Shown in pieces: positions 58,730 through 64,000 of a DNA stretch of 64,000 bases (the stretch's first letter is position 1; every line of letters starts with the position of its first letter). Made by a program: the position numbers and the translations under genes. The notes under the pieces were generated by a model. It searched no databases and had not been told where the DNA came from. It worked only from the letters and a program-made list of their open reading frames with translations. This stretch comes from an uncultured Clostridia bacterium (GTDB lineage Bacteria > Bacillota > Clostridia > Oscillospirales > Ruminococcaceae), in the NCBI GenBank assembly GCA_947632025.1, contig CANRNN010000003.1, positions 1 through 64,000 of the forward strand. The letters run 5' to 3'.

Positions 58730-59434
58730 TTAACCATGCGGTTTTTGCTGTTTCCAGTGGGCAGAGGTAATTGCCTCAAATCCTGCGGGAGATAGAATAG
58801 GCTTGTCAATTTTGCTGCGCGTTTCCGGAGAAATCGTAAATGAATCCGCGAATTCCTCACCTGCTCGCTTTATGTCACGAAGGTATCCCTCACGCTGGCG
58901 ACGTCCGTAATCAGAAACAAAAAGCTCCCCTTGAGGGCAAAAAATAGCAGTATAATGCGATTTTCCGCATATCGAATCAAGCTGCTTTCGCAGTGCCTCA
59001 TACATCGGAGCAGCTTCAACGTAACCGCACGTTGAAATAATTACAAGCTTCTTGATGTTCATTCGTCCGTCGCGCATTTCGTGAAATCCTCCCGCGAACC
59101 CGCCTTCATACGGCTTCATAAACGGCAGGCAGCGGTCTGTCATAGCTTTTAATGTTGACGGCATTCCGAAAAAATAAAGCGGAAAACTCTCCACGATAAT
59201 ATCCGACGCGAGAATCTTCTCAGAAATAATTCCCATATCGTCGTCAATCACGCATTTCCCTGCTGTTTTTCCCCAACAGGAAAAACACCCAAGGCAAGGC
59301 TTTATGTGCATTTTCGCAAGGTGGAGTATCTCGACCTCCGTGCTTTCGGGAAATCCCTCTGCAAAAGCTTTTGCAATGTTCAACGTGTTGGAACGTTCAC
59401 ATTTAGGGCTTCCATTGAGAATCAAAAGCTTCAT
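58730..59434 (-). CDS. NAD(P)H-dependent FMN oxidoreductase (flavodoxin fold)
   Basis: 234 residues of the NADPH-dependent FMN reductase family: LLILNGSPKCERSNTLN (FMN phosphate loop) and CLGCFSCWGKTAGKC, a cysteine group as in iron-sulfur flavoproteins. IIVESFPLYFFGMPSTLKAMTDR binds the flavin ring (split in print). It reduces a quinone, flavin or other acceptor. The start at 59434 (MKLLIL) follows GAGGTGG; it begins 8 bases after the phosphopantetheinyl transferase stop, so it is the last gene of the ketosynthase operon. Its role there, perhaps a redox step on the product, is inferred. Confidence 0.78.
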   Translation of the reverse strand: MKLLILNGSPKCERSNTLNIAKAFAEGFPESTEVEILHLAKMHIKPCLGCFSCWGKTAGKCVIDDDMGIISEKILASDIIVESFPLYFFGMPSTLKAMTDRCLPFMKPYEGGFAGGFHEMRDGRMNIKKLVIISTCGYVEAAPMYEALRKQLDSICGKSHYTAIFCPQGELFVSDYGRRQREGYLRDIKRAGEEFADSFTISPETRSKIDKPILSPAGFEAITSAHWKQQKPHG

Positions 59435-59442
59435 TTTCCACC

Positions 59443-60108
59443 TCAATCCTCAGAAGCAGTAAGTTTGACCGGTTCGTCCAGGAAGTGAATTTCCTCGTTG
59501 TTCGGAAGATTTATGCTGTAGTAATATTTCTCGCCGAACGCATGAATAATTCCCTCGCGAAAGCTCTCACCACGCAGATCCGCCGTTCTTAGATTATCAA
59601 AAATATCCGAGCCAACGCGCTTGACATAAGATTCCCGTCTTGTCCACGCTGTAAAAAATTCAAGCTCCTTGTCGTCGGAATCTTCAAGATTCTTGAACTC
59701 TGATTCAGTCATAAACGCCCGCGCAAGCTCTTTCATTCTATCGTCGGAATACTCGCGCTTGTGCTGAACATCGCAGCCTACTGCGGCATTTTCGCCTACA
59801 GCGAGTACACATAGCACACACCCCTCGCTGTGAGATACGCTGAAATCCACATTAGGCAAATCAACAAACGGACGTGCGTTTTCACCTATTATTATCGGGA
59901 ACGAAGCTCGGTCGATACGATTTTTCTGAAGCAGGCTGTCAAGCAGCAGAAAGCCGCTCGCGGAATCGCAGAAAGCGCTTCCGCGGCGGCGCAGAAGCTC
60001 GTCAAAATACCCCGAACAAAGCGGGCTATACTGCCCGCGAAGCGCTTCAACACGCGCTCTCATACCGTTTCCCGTAACTGCCGAGGCTGTAAAATCAATA
60101 ACGATCAT
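59443..60108 (-). CDS. 4'-phosphopantetheinyl transferase, Sfp type
   Basis: 221 residues: VDFSVSHSEGCVLCVLAVGE, AAVGCDVQHKR (metal-binding Asp), ELEFFTAWTRRESYVK (WxxxES motif with catalytic Lys). It moves phosphopantetheine from CoA to a Ser on carrier proteins, here most likely the ACP at 63507-63752. Its ATG overlaps the dehydratase stop (ATGA), so it belongs to the operon. Confidence 0.9.
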   Translation of the reverse strand: MIVIDFTASAVTGNGMRARVEALRGQYSPLCSGYFDELLRRRGSAFCDSASGFLLLDSLLQKNRIDRASFPIIIGENARPFVDLPNVDFSVSHSEGCVLCVLAVGENAAVGCDVQHKREYSDDRMKELARAFMTESEFKNLEDSDDKELEFFTAWTRRESYVKRVGSDIFDNLRTADLRGESFREGIIHAFGEKYYYSINLPNNEEIHFLDEPVKLTASED

Positions 60109-60545
60109 TCTTCATACACCGCACTTTTGTCCATTGAAGTGAACAGCATACTTCCCTTTGCCTTGACCACTCCGTCGGCGGAGATCACGGTGGAAAATTC
60201 GTATGCCGCAGCGCTTTTCAATGTACAAGAAACTTTAATTTCCAGTCTGTCGCCGGGTATTACAGGCTTTAAGAACTTGAAATCCTTGACCTTCAAAAGT
60301 ACATAGATCTTGTTGTCGTCGTTCTTTGGAGTGATGACCAGACTGCACAGCTGTGCTGCGCTTTCAATAAGCAGCACTCCCGGCATGATTGGAGCGTCCG
60401 GAAAATGCCCCATAAAATACGGCTCATTTACCGAAACGCACTTTATCCCCGTCGCGGATTCGCCCTCTACAAGCTCTGTTACGCGCTCGATCATCTGAAA
60501 CGGCGGACGCTGCTTGATTTTTTCGTTGATTTCAAGTAAATTCAA
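60105..60545 (-). CDS. fabZ: 3-hydroxyacyl-ACP dehydratase, FabZ type
   Basis: 146 residues, a hot-dog fold dehydratase: RPPFQMIERV, MGHFPDAPIMPGVLLIES with catalytic H47 and E61, then VLLKVKDFKFLKPVIPGDRL. It removes water from 3-hydroxyacyl-ACP to give a trans-2-enoyl-ACP. The start is TTG at 60545, overlapping the reductase stop by 4 bases. As a member of this cluster it probably acts on the growing polyene rather than in general fatty acid synthesis. Confidence 0.92.
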   Translation of the reverse strand: MNLLEINEKIKQRPPFQMIERVTELVEGESATGIKCVSVNEPYFMGHFPDAPIMPGVLLIESAAQLCSLVITPKNDDNKIYVLLKVKDFKFLKPVIPGDRLEIKVSCTLKSAAAYEFSTVISADGVVKAKGSMLFTSMDKSAVYEE

Positions 60546-61282
60546 AGGCTCAAACCTCCGTCAAGTACTATTACCTGCCCCGTGACATAATTGAAAGCAT
60601 CGGAACACATTGCCGCGACCATATCTGCGACCTCGCGGGCGCTTCCGAAACGTCCAAGCGGCACGGCTTTGAGGTATTCCTCACGTTTTTCCTCAGGAAT
60701 GGAATTTATCATTTCGGTTTCGATGAATCCCGGTGCTATTGCGTTTACGGTGATTTTTCTCGGAGCAAGTTCCTTTGCAAGGGTCGCGGTCATTGAGTTT
60801 ACCGCACCCTTTGTCGCGGAATATACTCCCTGCCCCTCAACTGCCAGAACAGAGCTTACGGACGATATGTTGATAATACGTCCGCCTGTTTTTATCATTT
60901 TGAGAGCTGCCTGCTGTGCGCAGTGGAAATAGCCCTTTATATTGATATCAAGGCTTCTTGTAAGGGAATCTTCGTTTATCATCAGCAGGTACGCGTCGTC
61001 AACAACGCCCGCGTTATTTACAAGAACGTCTATCCCGCTGAATGATTTTACGACCTCTCGGAACATTCCCTGCACCGCCTTTAGGTCGGAAGTATCTGCT
61101 TTGAACGCGGCAGCTTTCCGTCCGAGTTTTTCTATCTCGGCGACCGTTTCGGCAGCCTTAGCGTCATTTGAAGCATAATTCACCGCGACATTATAACCGC
61201 ACTCCGCAAGCCGCAGTGCGCAGGCTTTTCCTATCCCGCGCGAAGCTCCCGTGACGAGAGCCGTTTTATTATTGTTTTCCAT
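60542..61282 (-). CDS. fabG: 3-ketoacyl-ACP reductase, FabG type
   Basis: 246 residues, short-chain dehydrogenase: TGASRGIGKA (NADPH loop, 11-20), NNAGVV (89-94), catalytic S140, Y154 and K158 in ISSVSS and YSATKGAV, and a C-terminal GQVIVLDGG. It reduces the 3-keto group made by the ketosynthase. It begins 3 bases after the fused ketosynthase gene, so it is in the same transcript. Confidence 0.93.
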   Translation of the reverse strand: MENNNKTALVTGASRGIGKACALRLAECGYNVAVNYASNDAKAAETVAEIEKLGRKAAAFKADTSDLKAVQGMFREVVKSFSGIDVLVNNAGVVDDAYLLMINEDSLTRSLDINIKGYFHCAQQAALKMIKTGGRIINISSVSSVLAVEGQGVYSATKGAVNSMTATLAKELAPRKITVNAIAPGFIETEMINSIPEEKREEYLKAVPLGRFGSAREVADMVAAMCSDAFNYVTGQVIVLDGGLSL

Positions 61283-61285
61283 ATC

Positions 61286-63505
61286 CTACACCCTTTTGAA
61301 AACGACAGCGGAATACGCCCCGCCCGCTCCGAACGAAGCTGCCAAAACGTACCTGTAGTCGTTCCCGCTGTCCGCGAGGAGCCTTGCAGCCTGCGCAGCC
61401 TGTGCAGCTCCCGAAGCCGCCCGTGCCTCGCCTATCGTGTCTTTTATGTGATATACGGGAGTATTCCCGAAGATATTTCCGAGAACGTCCTTTTCCAGTG
61501 TGTCGACATCGGGATTTCCATTCGCGAAACCGCAGACCGCCGACACCTCCGATACCGTTATACCCGCAGCCGAAACAGCGTCATTTACTGCCTTTTCGAG
61601 AGCGGATTCAGAACCTTTAAGCGTCCCGAACTCCACAGCCTTGTGCGCGCACGCCCAGCCTGCCACCTCAGCAAGCTTTTTTGCCCCGCGCGAATCCGCC
61701 TCGGATTCCGTTTCGAGAACGAGAGCCACAGAGCCCTCTCCAAGCTCGATCTTATCTTTACTTAACGAGTAAAGATAATCTGTGATCTCGGTGCGCTCGT
61801 CCGTACCTGACGCTATCATGACCTTAGCGTCGCCGTTTCGCATAACGTCGGCAGCCTCGCAAACGCTCTGAAGTCCTGCCTGAATACTGTTGGCATTAGT
61901 GACATTATAGCCCTTTATTCCCGCAAAAATAGACAGATACCCGCCTGCCGCATTGTACACGGTATTCGGGAACGAGAACGCCGAACCGCCTGCCGTGCCG
62001 TTCTCAATAACGTTTTTCTGGAAATTGACGATTTCCGTGAGAGGACCGTCGGCGGTACCTATCACGATTCCGATGTCACGGGCATTTTCATCAGAAACGG
62101 TTATCCCCGCGTCTGCAAGGGCGCGAACGCCGCTTATGAGCTGCAGCTGTGAAAATCTGTCAAGCTTTCTGTAGAATGCCATTTTTATGCCGTGCTGCTT
62201 GTAATCATCGGAGGTTATTTCAACATTGGGCTTTCCGATAAGCTCTCCGATACCCGTAACGTATATTTTTTCGGAATTTGTTCTGTCGGGGATTTCGTGA
62301 GGATTCTTCGCGAACACGACAGAAGCGTTATTACCGCCGAACGCAAACGAATTCGACGCTGCGAAATTAACGGTTTTCTCCCGTTTTGTGTTCGGAACGA
62401 AGTCGATGTTACCCGCCTTTTCCTTCAAAGTCTCAAGGTTTTCGGGAGCATATCCGATAGTAGGCGGAATAATATTCTCCTTGACCGCCATTACTGTCAA
62501 AACAGCTTCGATAGAACCCGCCGCGCCAAGGCAGTGACCGGTCATTGATTTCGTTGAACTTACACTTAAATGGTCATTCTCGTCGAAAATCGTGTGGAGC
62601 GACAAAAATTCCGCTTCGTCGTTCTTTGCCGTACCCGTACCGTGAGCATTGATATAATCAAGGTCGGCAGGTTTCAGTCCAGAATTCGCAACAGCGCGGT
62701 TTATCGCAAGCATCTGTCCCTCGCCGTCGGGACGGGGGGCAGTGATATGGTGAGCGTCGGAAGAAACTCCCGAACCGAGAATTTCGCAGTATATCTCGGC
62801 TCCGCGGGCTTTGGCGCTCTCGTAACTTTCGATTATAAGAACTCCGGCGCCCTCTCCTAGCGTTATACCGCCCGAACGGTTGAACGGAGAGCAACTGTCC
62901 GCGTCAAGCGCGTGCAGCGCATGAAATCCAGCAAAAGCGAGCGACGAAAACGCGTCCGAGCCGCCTGCTGCAAAGGCGTCGGCTTTTCCCGCTCTGATAA
63001 GGTCGGCAGCGTAGGCTATACTTATCGTTCCAGCCGCGCAGGCGTTGACGATATTTGCAGTAACGCCGTTCATTCCGTAATGGAACGCGACGTTGTTGGA
63101 AAGCGCCGACGCTGTCATTCTGTAGATATCGTGAGGATTTTCGCAGCCCTTTTTCTTCTCGGAATAATACTTGTCTATGGAAACCGCGCCTCCGACGCAG
63201 TTGCCCATGATAACACCTATCCTGTCGGAATTTTCGGAAGTTATCTTATAGCCTGCGTCCTCAAGAGCCTCGCCTGCCGCTTTTATGCACAAAAGCGAGG
63301 AACGGTCATAATCCTCGCCCGACAGTTTTTCGGACGGGATAAGCACCTCCGCGCCTACATTGGCGTAACAGCCTTCGGTGTTTACGGAACTTACCTCGCG
63401 GATACCCGTAACGCCGTTTACCGCCGCGCTCCAGCACTGTTCGGTGTTCTCGCCGAGAGCGCACACCAATCCCAATCCCGTAACAACAACTCGTCTGTCG
63501 GACAT
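61286..63505 (-). CDS. fused ketosynthase - chain-length-factor-like protein
   Basis: 739 residues. The first half (about 1-402) is a complete KAS-II type ketosynthase: C156 in VNACAAGT, H288 in NAHGTGT and H324 in MTGHCLGAAG. The second half (about 412-739) is another ketosynthase fold, but all three catalytic residues are replaced: NVTNANSIQAG instead of NACxxG, VCGFANGNPD instead of the HGTGT, and IGEARAASGA instead of GHxxGAAG. This is the relation of KSalpha to KSbeta (chain length factor), here in one chain. The ATG at 63505 lies one base after the ACP stop, behind GGGTGAG. The active site makes C-C bonds; the dead half probably sets chain length or substrate. Confidence 0.9.
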   Translation of the reverse strand: MSDRRVVVTGLGLVCALGENTEQCWSAAVNGVTGIREVSSVNTEGCYANVGAEVLIPSEKLSGEDYDRSSLLCIKAAGEALEDAGYKITSENSDRIGVIMGNCVGGAVSIDKYYSEKKKGCENPHDIYRMTASALSNNVAFHYGMNGVTANIVNACAAGTISIAYAADLIRAGKADAFAAGGSDAFSSLAFAGFHALHALDADSCSPFNRSGGITLGEGAGVLIIESYESAKARGAEIYCEILGSGVSSDAHHITAPRPDGEGQMLAINRAVANSGLKPADLDYINAHGTGTAKNDEAEFLSLHTIFDENDHLSVSSTKSMTGHCLGAAGSIEAVLTVMAVKENIIPPTIGYAPENLETLKEKAGNIDFVPNTKREKTVNFAASNSFAFGGNNASVVFAKNPHEIPDRTNSEKIYVTGIGELIGKPNVEITSDDYKQHGIKMAFYRKLDRFSQLQLISGVRALADAGITVSDENARDIGIVIGTADGPLTEIVNFQKNVIENGTAGGSAFSFPNTVYNAAGGYLSIFAGIKGYNVTNANSIQAGLQSVCEAADVMRNGDAKVMIASGTDERTEITDYLYSLSKDKIELGEGSVALVLETESEADSRGAKKLAEVAGWACAHKAVEFGTLKGSESALEKAVNDAVSAAGITVSEVSAVCGFANGNPDVDTLEKDVLGNIFGNTPVYHIKDTIGEARAASGAAQAAQAARLLADSGNDYRYVLAASFGAGGAYSAVVFKRV

Positions 63506-63506
63506 A

Positions 63507-63752
63507 TTACTCACCCTGATGCTCTTCTACGAACTTCGCAAGAGTTTCGATGGACTTGAAATTCTCTCTTGCGGCACCCGTCATCTGCACTCCGAACAGA
63601 TTGTCGATGCCGGCGATTATTTCGATGGAATCAATGGAATCAAGCCCGATATCGTCGCCGAAAAGTTCGGAATCGTATTCAAGCTCGTCCTCCGGAATAC
63701 GAAGGTTTTCAACCAGCATTGCCTTGATCTTCTCGCAAATTTCAGTGTTCAT
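63507..63752 (-). CDS. acyl carrier protein
   Basis: 81 residues, four-helix ACP: CEKIKAMLVENLRIPEDELE, then GDDIGLDSIDSIEIIAGIDN with S39 (DSID) as the phosphopantetheine site. The cluster's own Sfp-type transferase would load it. It is not the housekeeping ACP by context: it starts a run with the ketosynthase fusion. AAGGAGA precedes the ATG. Confidence 0.9.
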   Translation of the reverse strand: MNTEICEKIKAMLVENLRIPEDELEYDSELFGDDIGLDSIDSIEIIAGIDNLFGVQMTGAARENFKSIETLAKFVEEHQGE

Positions 63753-63796
63753 AATAAAATCTCCTTAAAAATATTTTTCCGATAAAATCGGTTTTT

Positions 63797-64000
63797 TTAC
63801 TTTTGTTTCGGGGAATACATACCGCAGTCGCCGTAACGCGAAACAAGCTCATTGTAAAGCGACTTTACGGCTTCCTCGGATTTTTTTGAGATCTCCCTCG
63901 CGTACTTGCTGTGGCGCATATCGGGAGGGCAGCTGCATTCTATCGGCTCACCGACAAGCAGCTTCTGTCTTTTCCCGAACACAAACGGATACGTCCCGTA
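63797..64000 (-). CDS. lysophospholipid-acyltransferase-like protein, 3' end only
   Basis: The window cuts this gene. The visible C-terminal 67 residues read TYPFVFGKRQKLLVGEPIE and then a helical charged tail (REISKKSEEAVKSLYNEL) ending GMYSPKQK. This matches the end of PlsC/LPLAT-type acyltransferases (TYPFxFGKR..G). In aryl polyene clusters such an acyltransferase puts the polyene on a glycerolipid or glycan. The true start lies beyond 64000. Confidence 0.65.
   Translation of the reverse strand, partial: YGTYPFVFGKRQKLLVGEPIECSCPPDMRHSKYAREISKKSEEAVKSLYNELVSRYGDCGMYSPKQK

What the first reader, a model, noticed from the sequence alone, without database searches (positions are those of the whole stretch)
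58730..64000. Polyene-type biosynthetic cluster with a fused ketosynthase/chain-length-factor
Seven genes in one tight operon (overlaps or gaps of a few bases): acyltransferase tail, ACP, KS-CLF fusion, FabG, FabZ, Sfp-type transferase, FMN reductase. There is no enoyl reductase and no FabH in view. In aryl polyene (APE) clusters of Gram-negative bacteria, separate KS and CLF plus KR and DH extend an acyl starter into a conjugated polyene and an acyltransferase attaches it to lipid. The same logic here, in a Clostridia-like genome and with KS and CLF fused in one chain, suggests a polyene, aryl-polyene-like or other unusual acyl product. Direct in sequence: intact triad C156/H288/H324 in the first half and loss of all three in the second half. 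Inferred: the product.
Basis: partly seen in the sequence, partly recalled or inferred. Interest (0 to 1): 0.85.

Follow-up and report, generated by a model that had tools for sequence, protein, structure and literature searches.

The report
Gut-clostridial acyl-chain cassette, fused ketosynthase
A compact seven-gene unit in uncultured clostridia, probably of the gut, appears to build a special, probably unsaturated, acyl chain and hand it to a lipid, using an enzyme in which the catalytic and the chain-length-setting halves are one protein; in two related genomes it is the only enzyme of its kind that was found, so it may stand in for normal fatty acid synthesis there.

Summary
Seven co-directional genes (window 58730-64000, running on to contig position 64504) encode a PlsC-type acyltransferase, ACP, fused KS-CLF, FabG-type KR, FabZ-type DH, Sfp-type transferase and an FMN flavoprotein. 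The KS half has C159/H291/K322/H327; the CLF half lacks the Cys and both His. The same cassette recurs in 26 related loci. It is not the host's primary FAS, which lies elsewhere (ACC, FabH, FabD, FabG, FabF, FabZ; FabV).

Best reading: a type II, highly reducing-like acyl synthase whose product is passed to a lipid. Polyene is plausible but unproven: the flavoprotein (18 of 20 cassettes with downstream room) is of a superfamily that includes an ene-reductase.

Corrections: KS-CLF fusion is not unique to this cassette (two distant fused relatives, one in a cyl-like operon). It is not an APE, cyl or celluxanthene cluster.

New: in a sister genus (2 of 2 sampled genomes, 97-98% complete) the fused KS-CLF is the only FabF-type condensing enzyme found, no FabH matched, and the cassette has taken up AccA, AccD and FabD. 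A stand-in fatty acid synthase is thus a live alternative. No product is known.

The parts
63797..64000 (-). PlsC/LPLAT-type acyltransferase (235 aa; continues outside the window to contig position 64504 = L002:8797-9504)
   Evidence: PF01553 1.2e-17; PDB 5kym PlsC 1e-9; NHx4D in 25 of 26 sequences (the 26th, L020, is a fragment), FPEG in 25 of 26, window included
63507..63752 (-). acyl carrier protein, 81 aa, attachment Ser in GLDSIDSIEI
   Evidence: PF00550 2.2e-10; Ser in 29 of 29 sequences, window, L113 and L114 included
61286..63514 (-). fused ketosynthase-chain length factor, 742 aa
   Evidence: two ketoacyl synthase stretches; relatives in 26 loci, 23 in one frame
62291..63514 (-). KS half (residues 1-408), catalytic C159/H291/K322/H327
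61286..62290 (-). CLF half (residues 409-742), nucleophile and both His lost
   Evidence: 25% identical to KS half; CLF halves on one side of a branch, 12 of 12
60542..61282 (-). FabG-type 3-ketoacyl-ACP reductase
   Evidence: S-Y-K kept in 26 of 26 sequences, window and L113 included
60105..60545 (-). FabZ-type 3-hydroxyacyl-ACP dehydratase
   Evidence: NCBIfam PRK00006 122 bits, over its cut-off 113; GHFP motif 25 of 25 sequences, window, L113 and L114 included
59443..60108 (-). Sfp-type 4'-phosphopantetheinyl transferase
   Evidence: PF01648 3.8e-10; present in 13 of 20 cassettes with downstream room
58730..59446 (-). FMN flavoprotein (flavodoxin-like NAD(P)H oxidoreductase) with CxxCxxCx7C; candidate ene-reductase

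Best explanation
A self-contained type II acyl synthase, built like a highly reducing type II polyketide synthase, that makes one special acyl chain and delivers it to a lipid. Steps: (1) the Sfp-type transferase charges the cassette's own ACP; (2) the host's FabD and acetyl-CoA carboxylase supply malonyl-ACP (in the sister genus FabD, AccD and AccA sit in the operon); (3) the KS half condenses malonyl units while the fused CLF half, having lost its active site, forms the other wall of the pocket and sets the chain length; (4) KR and DH turn each keto unit into a double bond; with no canonical enoyl reductase the chain would stay largely unsaturated, most simply a conjugated polyenoyl-ACP; (5) the PlsC-type acyltransferase puts it on a glycerolipid or similar acceptor; (6) the FMN flavoprotein carries out an accessory reduction. 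Shown by sequence: the genes, their catalytic residues, the fusion, the unit's conservation, and its separateness from FAS. Inferred: starter unit, chain length, degree of unsaturation, acceptor, the flavoprotein's role.
For: Catalytic motifs kept in AT, ACP, KR and DH across 25 to 29 sequences (window and in part L113/L114 included) and in KS 19 of 19; 26 related loci with no window flank gene detected beside any (some of these loci have little flank), so the cassette is the unit; separate FAS in the same genome; KS halves 12 of 12 apart from 36 of 36 FabF in the tree; ishigamide KS 6kxd in the sequence and fold lists, behind many FabF; FabD, AccD and AccA in relatives' operons; a patatin-like phospholipase gene overlapping the acyltransferase gene in L049 and L111, which would fit a lysophospholipid acceptor.
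Against: The KS half resembles FabF more than any PKS KS (298 bits against 204 to the ishigamide KS and 167 to 6qsp, which I recall as the aryl-polyene KS), and NCBIfam's KAS II subfamily model PRK07314 takes the protein above its cut-off (463.5 over 387). The FMN gene, in 18 of 20 cassettes with room, is of a superfamily that includes an ene-reductase, so the product may be saturated in part or whole. The genus g231 result fits a stand-in FAS as well. No pigment, mass or transcript is available. Patatin genes of this type occur in 13 of 14 of these genomes and lie by the cassette in three.
Confidence: 0.5

Rival explanations
1. A second, complete type II fatty acid synthase: the FMN flavoprotein is the enoyl reductase, and the cassette makes a saturated or partly saturated chain whose length the CLF half fixes. 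In genus g231 it has replaced FAS altogether.
For: FMN gene in 18 of 20 cassettes; its profile's best solved relative is flavone reductase 7d38, 7.2e-13 (PMC7862272, passages, calls FLR an ene-reductase); in G386 and G488 the fused KS-CLF is the only PF00109 protein found and no FabH matched, while AccA, AccD and FabD are in the operon, with an acyl-ACP thioesterase-like gene after FMN in L110.
Confidence: 0.3
2. A granadaene-like (cyl) pigment pathway reduced to its core, with an amino acid or sugar head group added by genes elsewhere.
For: A cyl-like operon, L113, has KR, ACP, DH, a GcvT-type protein and a fused KS-CLF of 804 aa, 32% identical; the KS halves group together.
Against: No GcvT/CylF-type, ABC transporter or glycosyltransferase gene among the seven; PlsC-type acyltransferase instead; L113 and L114 are long branches whose place is unsure.
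Confidence: 0.08
3. Ordinary primary fatty acid synthesis with a duplicated FabF.
For: KS half is FabF-like (TIGR03150 480 bits, just under its cut-off 493.75; PRK07314 463.5 over its cut-off 387); relatives' operons hold FabD, AccD and AccA.
Against: The window's genome has another FAS operon and FabV; the second KS half has lost its catalytic residues; KS halves do not fall among FabF; separate FabF in 11 of 13 cassette-bearing genomes.
Confidence: 0.05

Closest known systems
Ishigamide KS-CLF (Iga11-Iga12) and other highly reducing type II PKSs
   Different: there two separate proteins, actinomycete; here one fused chain, clostridial, with PlsC-type acyltransferase and an FMN flavoprotein
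Granadaene-type cyl operons (PMC6985545)
   Same: ACP, KR, DH, phosphopantetheinyl transferase and a KS of the CylH/I kind in Gram-positive bacteria; a cyl-like operon found here (L113) has a fused KS-CLF
   Different: no GcvT/CylF-type, ABC exporter or glycosyltransferase gene; KS-CLF 32% identical to that of L113
Aryl polyene clusters (ApeO-ApeC, PMC8358021)
   Same: KS-CLF + KR + DH + ACP making an unsaturated chain for a lipid
   Different: APE has separate KS and CLF, a second KS (ApeR) and two ACPs; here fused, single, one ACP
Celluxanthene (cex) pathway of cellulolytic clostridia (PMC12144888)
   Same: polyene from anaerobic Clostridia
   Different: cex uses an iterative type I PKS
Flavone reductase FLR (7d38; PMC7862272), for the FMN protein
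   Same: flavodoxin-like fold, N-terminal part alignable
   Different: only 39-52 bits over at most 107 positions; NQO2 is slightly nearer by fold; function not transferable

Membership tests
KS-CLF pair | catalytic Cys-His-His in KS | tested here: met
   19 of 19 fused proteins, window included
KS-CLF pair | partner of KS fold without the catalytic Cys/His | tested here: met
   CLF half: no Cys at the column, H1 to F, H2 to E/D in 9 of 9 window-type halves; PF00109 match 3.7e-12
KS-CLF pair | the two halves pack as a heterodimer and share a pocket that sets length | not testable with these tools
   model pTM 0.87, pLDDT 77 but no coordinates to inspect; fold rows cover residues 3-406 only
highly reducing type II PKS | KR and DH with KS-CLF and ACP | tested here: met
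highly reducing type II PKS | no enoyl reductase | tested here: inconclusive
   none of the known kinds among the seven genes; FMN protein is a candidate
highly reducing type II PKS | conjugated polyene product | not testable with these tools
   no product data
aryl polyene (APE) cluster | separate KS (ApeO) and CLF (ApeC) plus second KS (ApeR) | tested here: not met
   single fused gene; only one other PF00109 protein in the genome, the FAS FabF
aryl polyene (APE) cluster | two ACPs | tested here: not met
   one ACP in the operon
cyl (granadaene) operon | CylF-type GcvT protein and ABC exporter beside the synthase | tested here: not met
   not among the seven genes by Pfam; flank translations read by eye
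cyl (granadaene) operon | CylE N-acyltransferase | not tested
   CylE was not used as a query; the only acyltransferase among the seven is PF01553 PlsC-type
celluxanthene cluster | iterative type I PKS CexF | tested here: not met
   discrete type II proteins
primary FAS operon | FabH, known enoyl reductase, FabD and ACC in the operon | tested here: not met
   absent from the seven genes; present elsewhere in the genome
FLR-type ene-reductase (for FMN protein) | reduces C=C with FMN/NAD(P)H | not testable with these tools
   homology only partial

The most novel reading that the evidence does not exclude
The cassette is a new kind of type II fatty acid synthase: a one-chain KS-CLF elongates, with a flavodoxin-like FMN protein as a new class of enoyl reductase. 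In genus g231 it is the sole synthase, FabF and FabH having been lost and AccA, AccD and FabD drawn into its operon; in the other hosts it runs beside normal FAS to make a lipid of its own.
Probability: 0.18. Interest if true: 0.88.

Novelty: new variant of a known kind. Interest (0 to 1): 0.6.

Why it matters
Few acyl natural products of gut clostridia have genes assigned (my own knowledge). A seven-gene unit whose KS and CLF are one chain gives fixed 1:1 stoichiometry and an easy system to reconstitute for asking how a CLF sets chain length. If the sister genus really lives with this as its only condensing enzyme, it tests whether a PKS-like KS-CLF can serve as a cell's fatty acid synthase, and whether a flavodoxin-like protein can be an enoyl reductase.

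Tried and rejected
Primary FAS: rejected for this genome. FabK was looked for (only sub-cut-off matches of 27.9 and 22.3 bits); FabV was found. FabI was not told apart from other SDR proteins (one search lists six SDR matches, not examined further).

Yellow affinity substance of cellulolytic clostridia: considered because the hosts are related clostridia; rejected as the same pathway, since cex is a type I PKS (PMC12144888). A link with cellulosomes was tested through dockerin matches in 16 genomes: own genome one sub-cut-off match, G027 49, its cassette-free congener G138 63; no link seen. Whether Ruminococcus flavefaciens has the cassette could not be tested (genomes unnamed).

Patatin-like gene as part of the cassette: overlapping the acyltransferase gene in L049 and L111, and near the other end of the cassette in L015 across a TetR-like gene (named by eye); in the other ten genomes with a match it lies on another contig or, in G180, 68 kb off, as far as contig numbers show (G964's cassette contig is not given). 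Kept only as a hint.

Fixed genomic site: no window flank gene was found beside the cassette at any of 26 loci at E 1e-15. Weak negative: the ORF picker is greedy and lost some genes, even cassette genes, and several loci have little flank.

Chain length from pocket residues: not attempted beyond printing the FabF gate position, as the needed CLF structures could not be aligned and no coordinates are given.

Structure match of the CLF half alone: not run (both prediction jobs went to the whole protein and the FMN protein). A fold that is not listed is not excluded.

Literature: ten searches. Judged by titles and abstract starts, none listed a paper on this cassette; five wordings of 'fused KS-CLF' gave 0 papers. 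The library lacks most subscription papers, so this does not show that it is unpublished. Papers seen: PMC12144888 parts 1-2 of 4; PMC11839114 part 1 of 3; PMC8358021 part 1 of 4; PMC6985545 section 7 and one passage; passages only of PMC10132072, PMC7862272, PMC6920887, PMC9125021, PMC12664062, PMC13311259; all others search listing only. That the GBS CylI itself is a fused KS-CLF was not stated in what I saw and was not tested.
Full report
The observation. The window's last genes form one minus-strand operon of seven: acyltransferase, ACP, fused KS-CLF, KR, DH, phosphopantetheinyl transferase, FMN flavoprotein. The contig goes on beyond the window; the acyltransferase starts at contig position 64504, and the next genes upstream are a divergent TIGR04086 membrane protein and a YlbJ-like gene (below its cut-off). 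The downstream neighbour is a convergent PAS-domain gene. The operon is therefore complete as seen, 58730-64504. Spacing is 44, -8, 3, -4, -4 and -4 bases.

The unit. A scan of bacterial genomes gave 21 loci: 18 have the fused gene in one frame, L017 and L020 have it split over two frames, L023 is cut by the contig end. Five more came from whole-genome searches (L049, L050, L110-L112). The record titles of the 21 name uncultured Clostridia, Oscillospiraceae or Ruminococcaceae, or just 'bacterium', with sample names such as water deer colon and 'Lapin' (rabbit, my reading), hence 'gut'. Of the 26, 20 have at least 3 kb beyond the last cassette gene; FMN is present in 18 of 20 (not L013, L112) and the phosphopantetheinyl transferase in 13 of 20, at the score limits used. 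ACP and KS-CLF were found in all 26; the acyltransferase in 25 (not L050); KR and DH in all but L005, L014 (DH only) and L023, where the contig ends close by, and L049, where DH is not between KR and FMN and the contig ends 159 bases after FMN. Catalytic motifs are kept: AT NHx4D 25 of 26 (L020 is a fragment), ACP Ser 29 of 29, DH 25 of 25, KR 26 of 26, four Cys of the flavoprotein 20 of 20; these counts include the window, and ACP, DH and KR in part L113 and L114. The window's flank genes were not found at any of the 26 loci (a weak negative). The cassette is sparse: window-type fused proteins in 5 of 197 genomes drawn from the family, 6 of 394 from the order (three of them the same as before) and 1 of 398 from the phylum, the window's own.

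Not the host's fatty acid synthase. The genome has one other FabF in an operon with FabH, FabG, AccB, FabZ, AccC, AccD and AccA and a divergent FabD (genes named from their translations; FabF, FabH and FabG also by Pfam). A FabV-type enoyl reductase is present (3.6e-106); FabK was not found above cut-off.

Variation that tells. In the order-level relatives L110 and L111 (G488, G386) the operon also carries FabD, AccD and AccA between DH and FMN, and in L110 an acyl-ACP thioesterase-like gene that overlaps the FMN gene by eight bases. These two genomes, 97% and 98% complete, show no PF00109 protein other than the fused one and no FabH match. Of 13 cassette-bearing genomes examined, 11 have a separate FabF and 9 a FabH match; G071 and G962 lack the FabH match yet have FabF, and 10 of 14 control genomes rang, so the FabH absence is the weaker half of the evidence. 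Two members of the same family without a detected cassette, G471 and G548, have FabH. So in this genus the fused enzyme is the only condensing enzyme found. Either it lost ordinary FAS and imports fatty acids, keeping malonyl supply for the cassette alone, or the cassette makes its fatty acids.

Mechanism. The most economical pathway is: ACP charged by the cassette's transferase; malonyl-ACP from the host (or cassette) FabD and ACC; iterative condensation by the KS half with the CLF half as pocket wall; reduction and dehydration by KR and DH to an enoyl unit each turn; transfer by the PlsC-type acyltransferase to a lipid. With no further reduction the chain is a conjugated polyene. With the flavoprotein as enoyl reductase it is a saturated or mixed chain. 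Evidence at hand does not decide, so I give the unsaturated-lipid reading 0.5 and the parallel FAS reading 0.3. A patatin-like phospholipase gene overlapping the acyltransferase gene in L049 and L111 hints at a lysophospholipid acceptor, but such genes are common in these genomes (13 of 14).

Comparison with the known. It works like a highly reducing type II PKS. It is not an APE cluster (PMC8358021: separate KS and CLF, second KS, two ACPs), not a cyl operon (PMC6985545: CylF, ABC exporter; CylE not tested) and not cex (PMC12144888: type I PKS). The fusion itself is shared with a cyl-like operon in another genome of the phylum (L113: GcvT-type protein, KR, ACP, DH; FabD and AcpS by eye) and with a third cluster type (L114: adenylation-ACP-thioesterase protein). 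What is new, as far as ten searches of an open library can tell, is the cassette, its acyltransferase-flavoprotein make-up and host range, and above all its apparent sole-synthase state in one genus.

Limits. The record titles of the 21 named relatives all say metagenome-assembled genome; absence from a draft genome is weak, though two genomes agree. I have no product, expression or growth data.

Noticed in passing
G386 (L111) and G488 (L110): Two 97-98% complete genomes of one genus show no FabF-type enzyme besides the fused KS-CLF and no FabH match, while the cassette operon carries AccA, AccD and FabD.
   Followed up: partly
L113:10028-16617 (G759): A cyl-like operon in another genome of the phylum with GcvT-type protein, KR, ACP, DH and a fused KS-CLF of 804 aa, so fused KS-CLF exists outside this cassette.
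   Followed up: partly
L114:1764-11539 (G721): A third kind of cluster: fused KS-CLF (753 aa) with DH, a weak KR match, ACP, an adenylation-ACP-thioesterase protein and two similar small proteins (93 aa each) that look like leader-type peptides by eye.
   Followed up: no
G000:C13:26299-26979 (L116): The host has a FabV-type enoyl reductase and no FabK above cut-off.
   Followed up: yes
L017:1827-4417 and L020:5000-7276: The fused gene is split over two frames in two older metagenome bins; assembly error or decay cannot be told apart.
   Followed up: no
L049:3992-4849, L111:12470-13336, L015:11772-12614: Patatin-like genes (PF01734 + DUF6363) overlapping the cassette's acyltransferase gene (L049, L111) or near its downstream end (L015).
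   Followed up: partly
G027 and G138: Two genomes of one genus with 49 and 63 dockerin matches; only G027 was found to hold the cassette.
   Followed up: no
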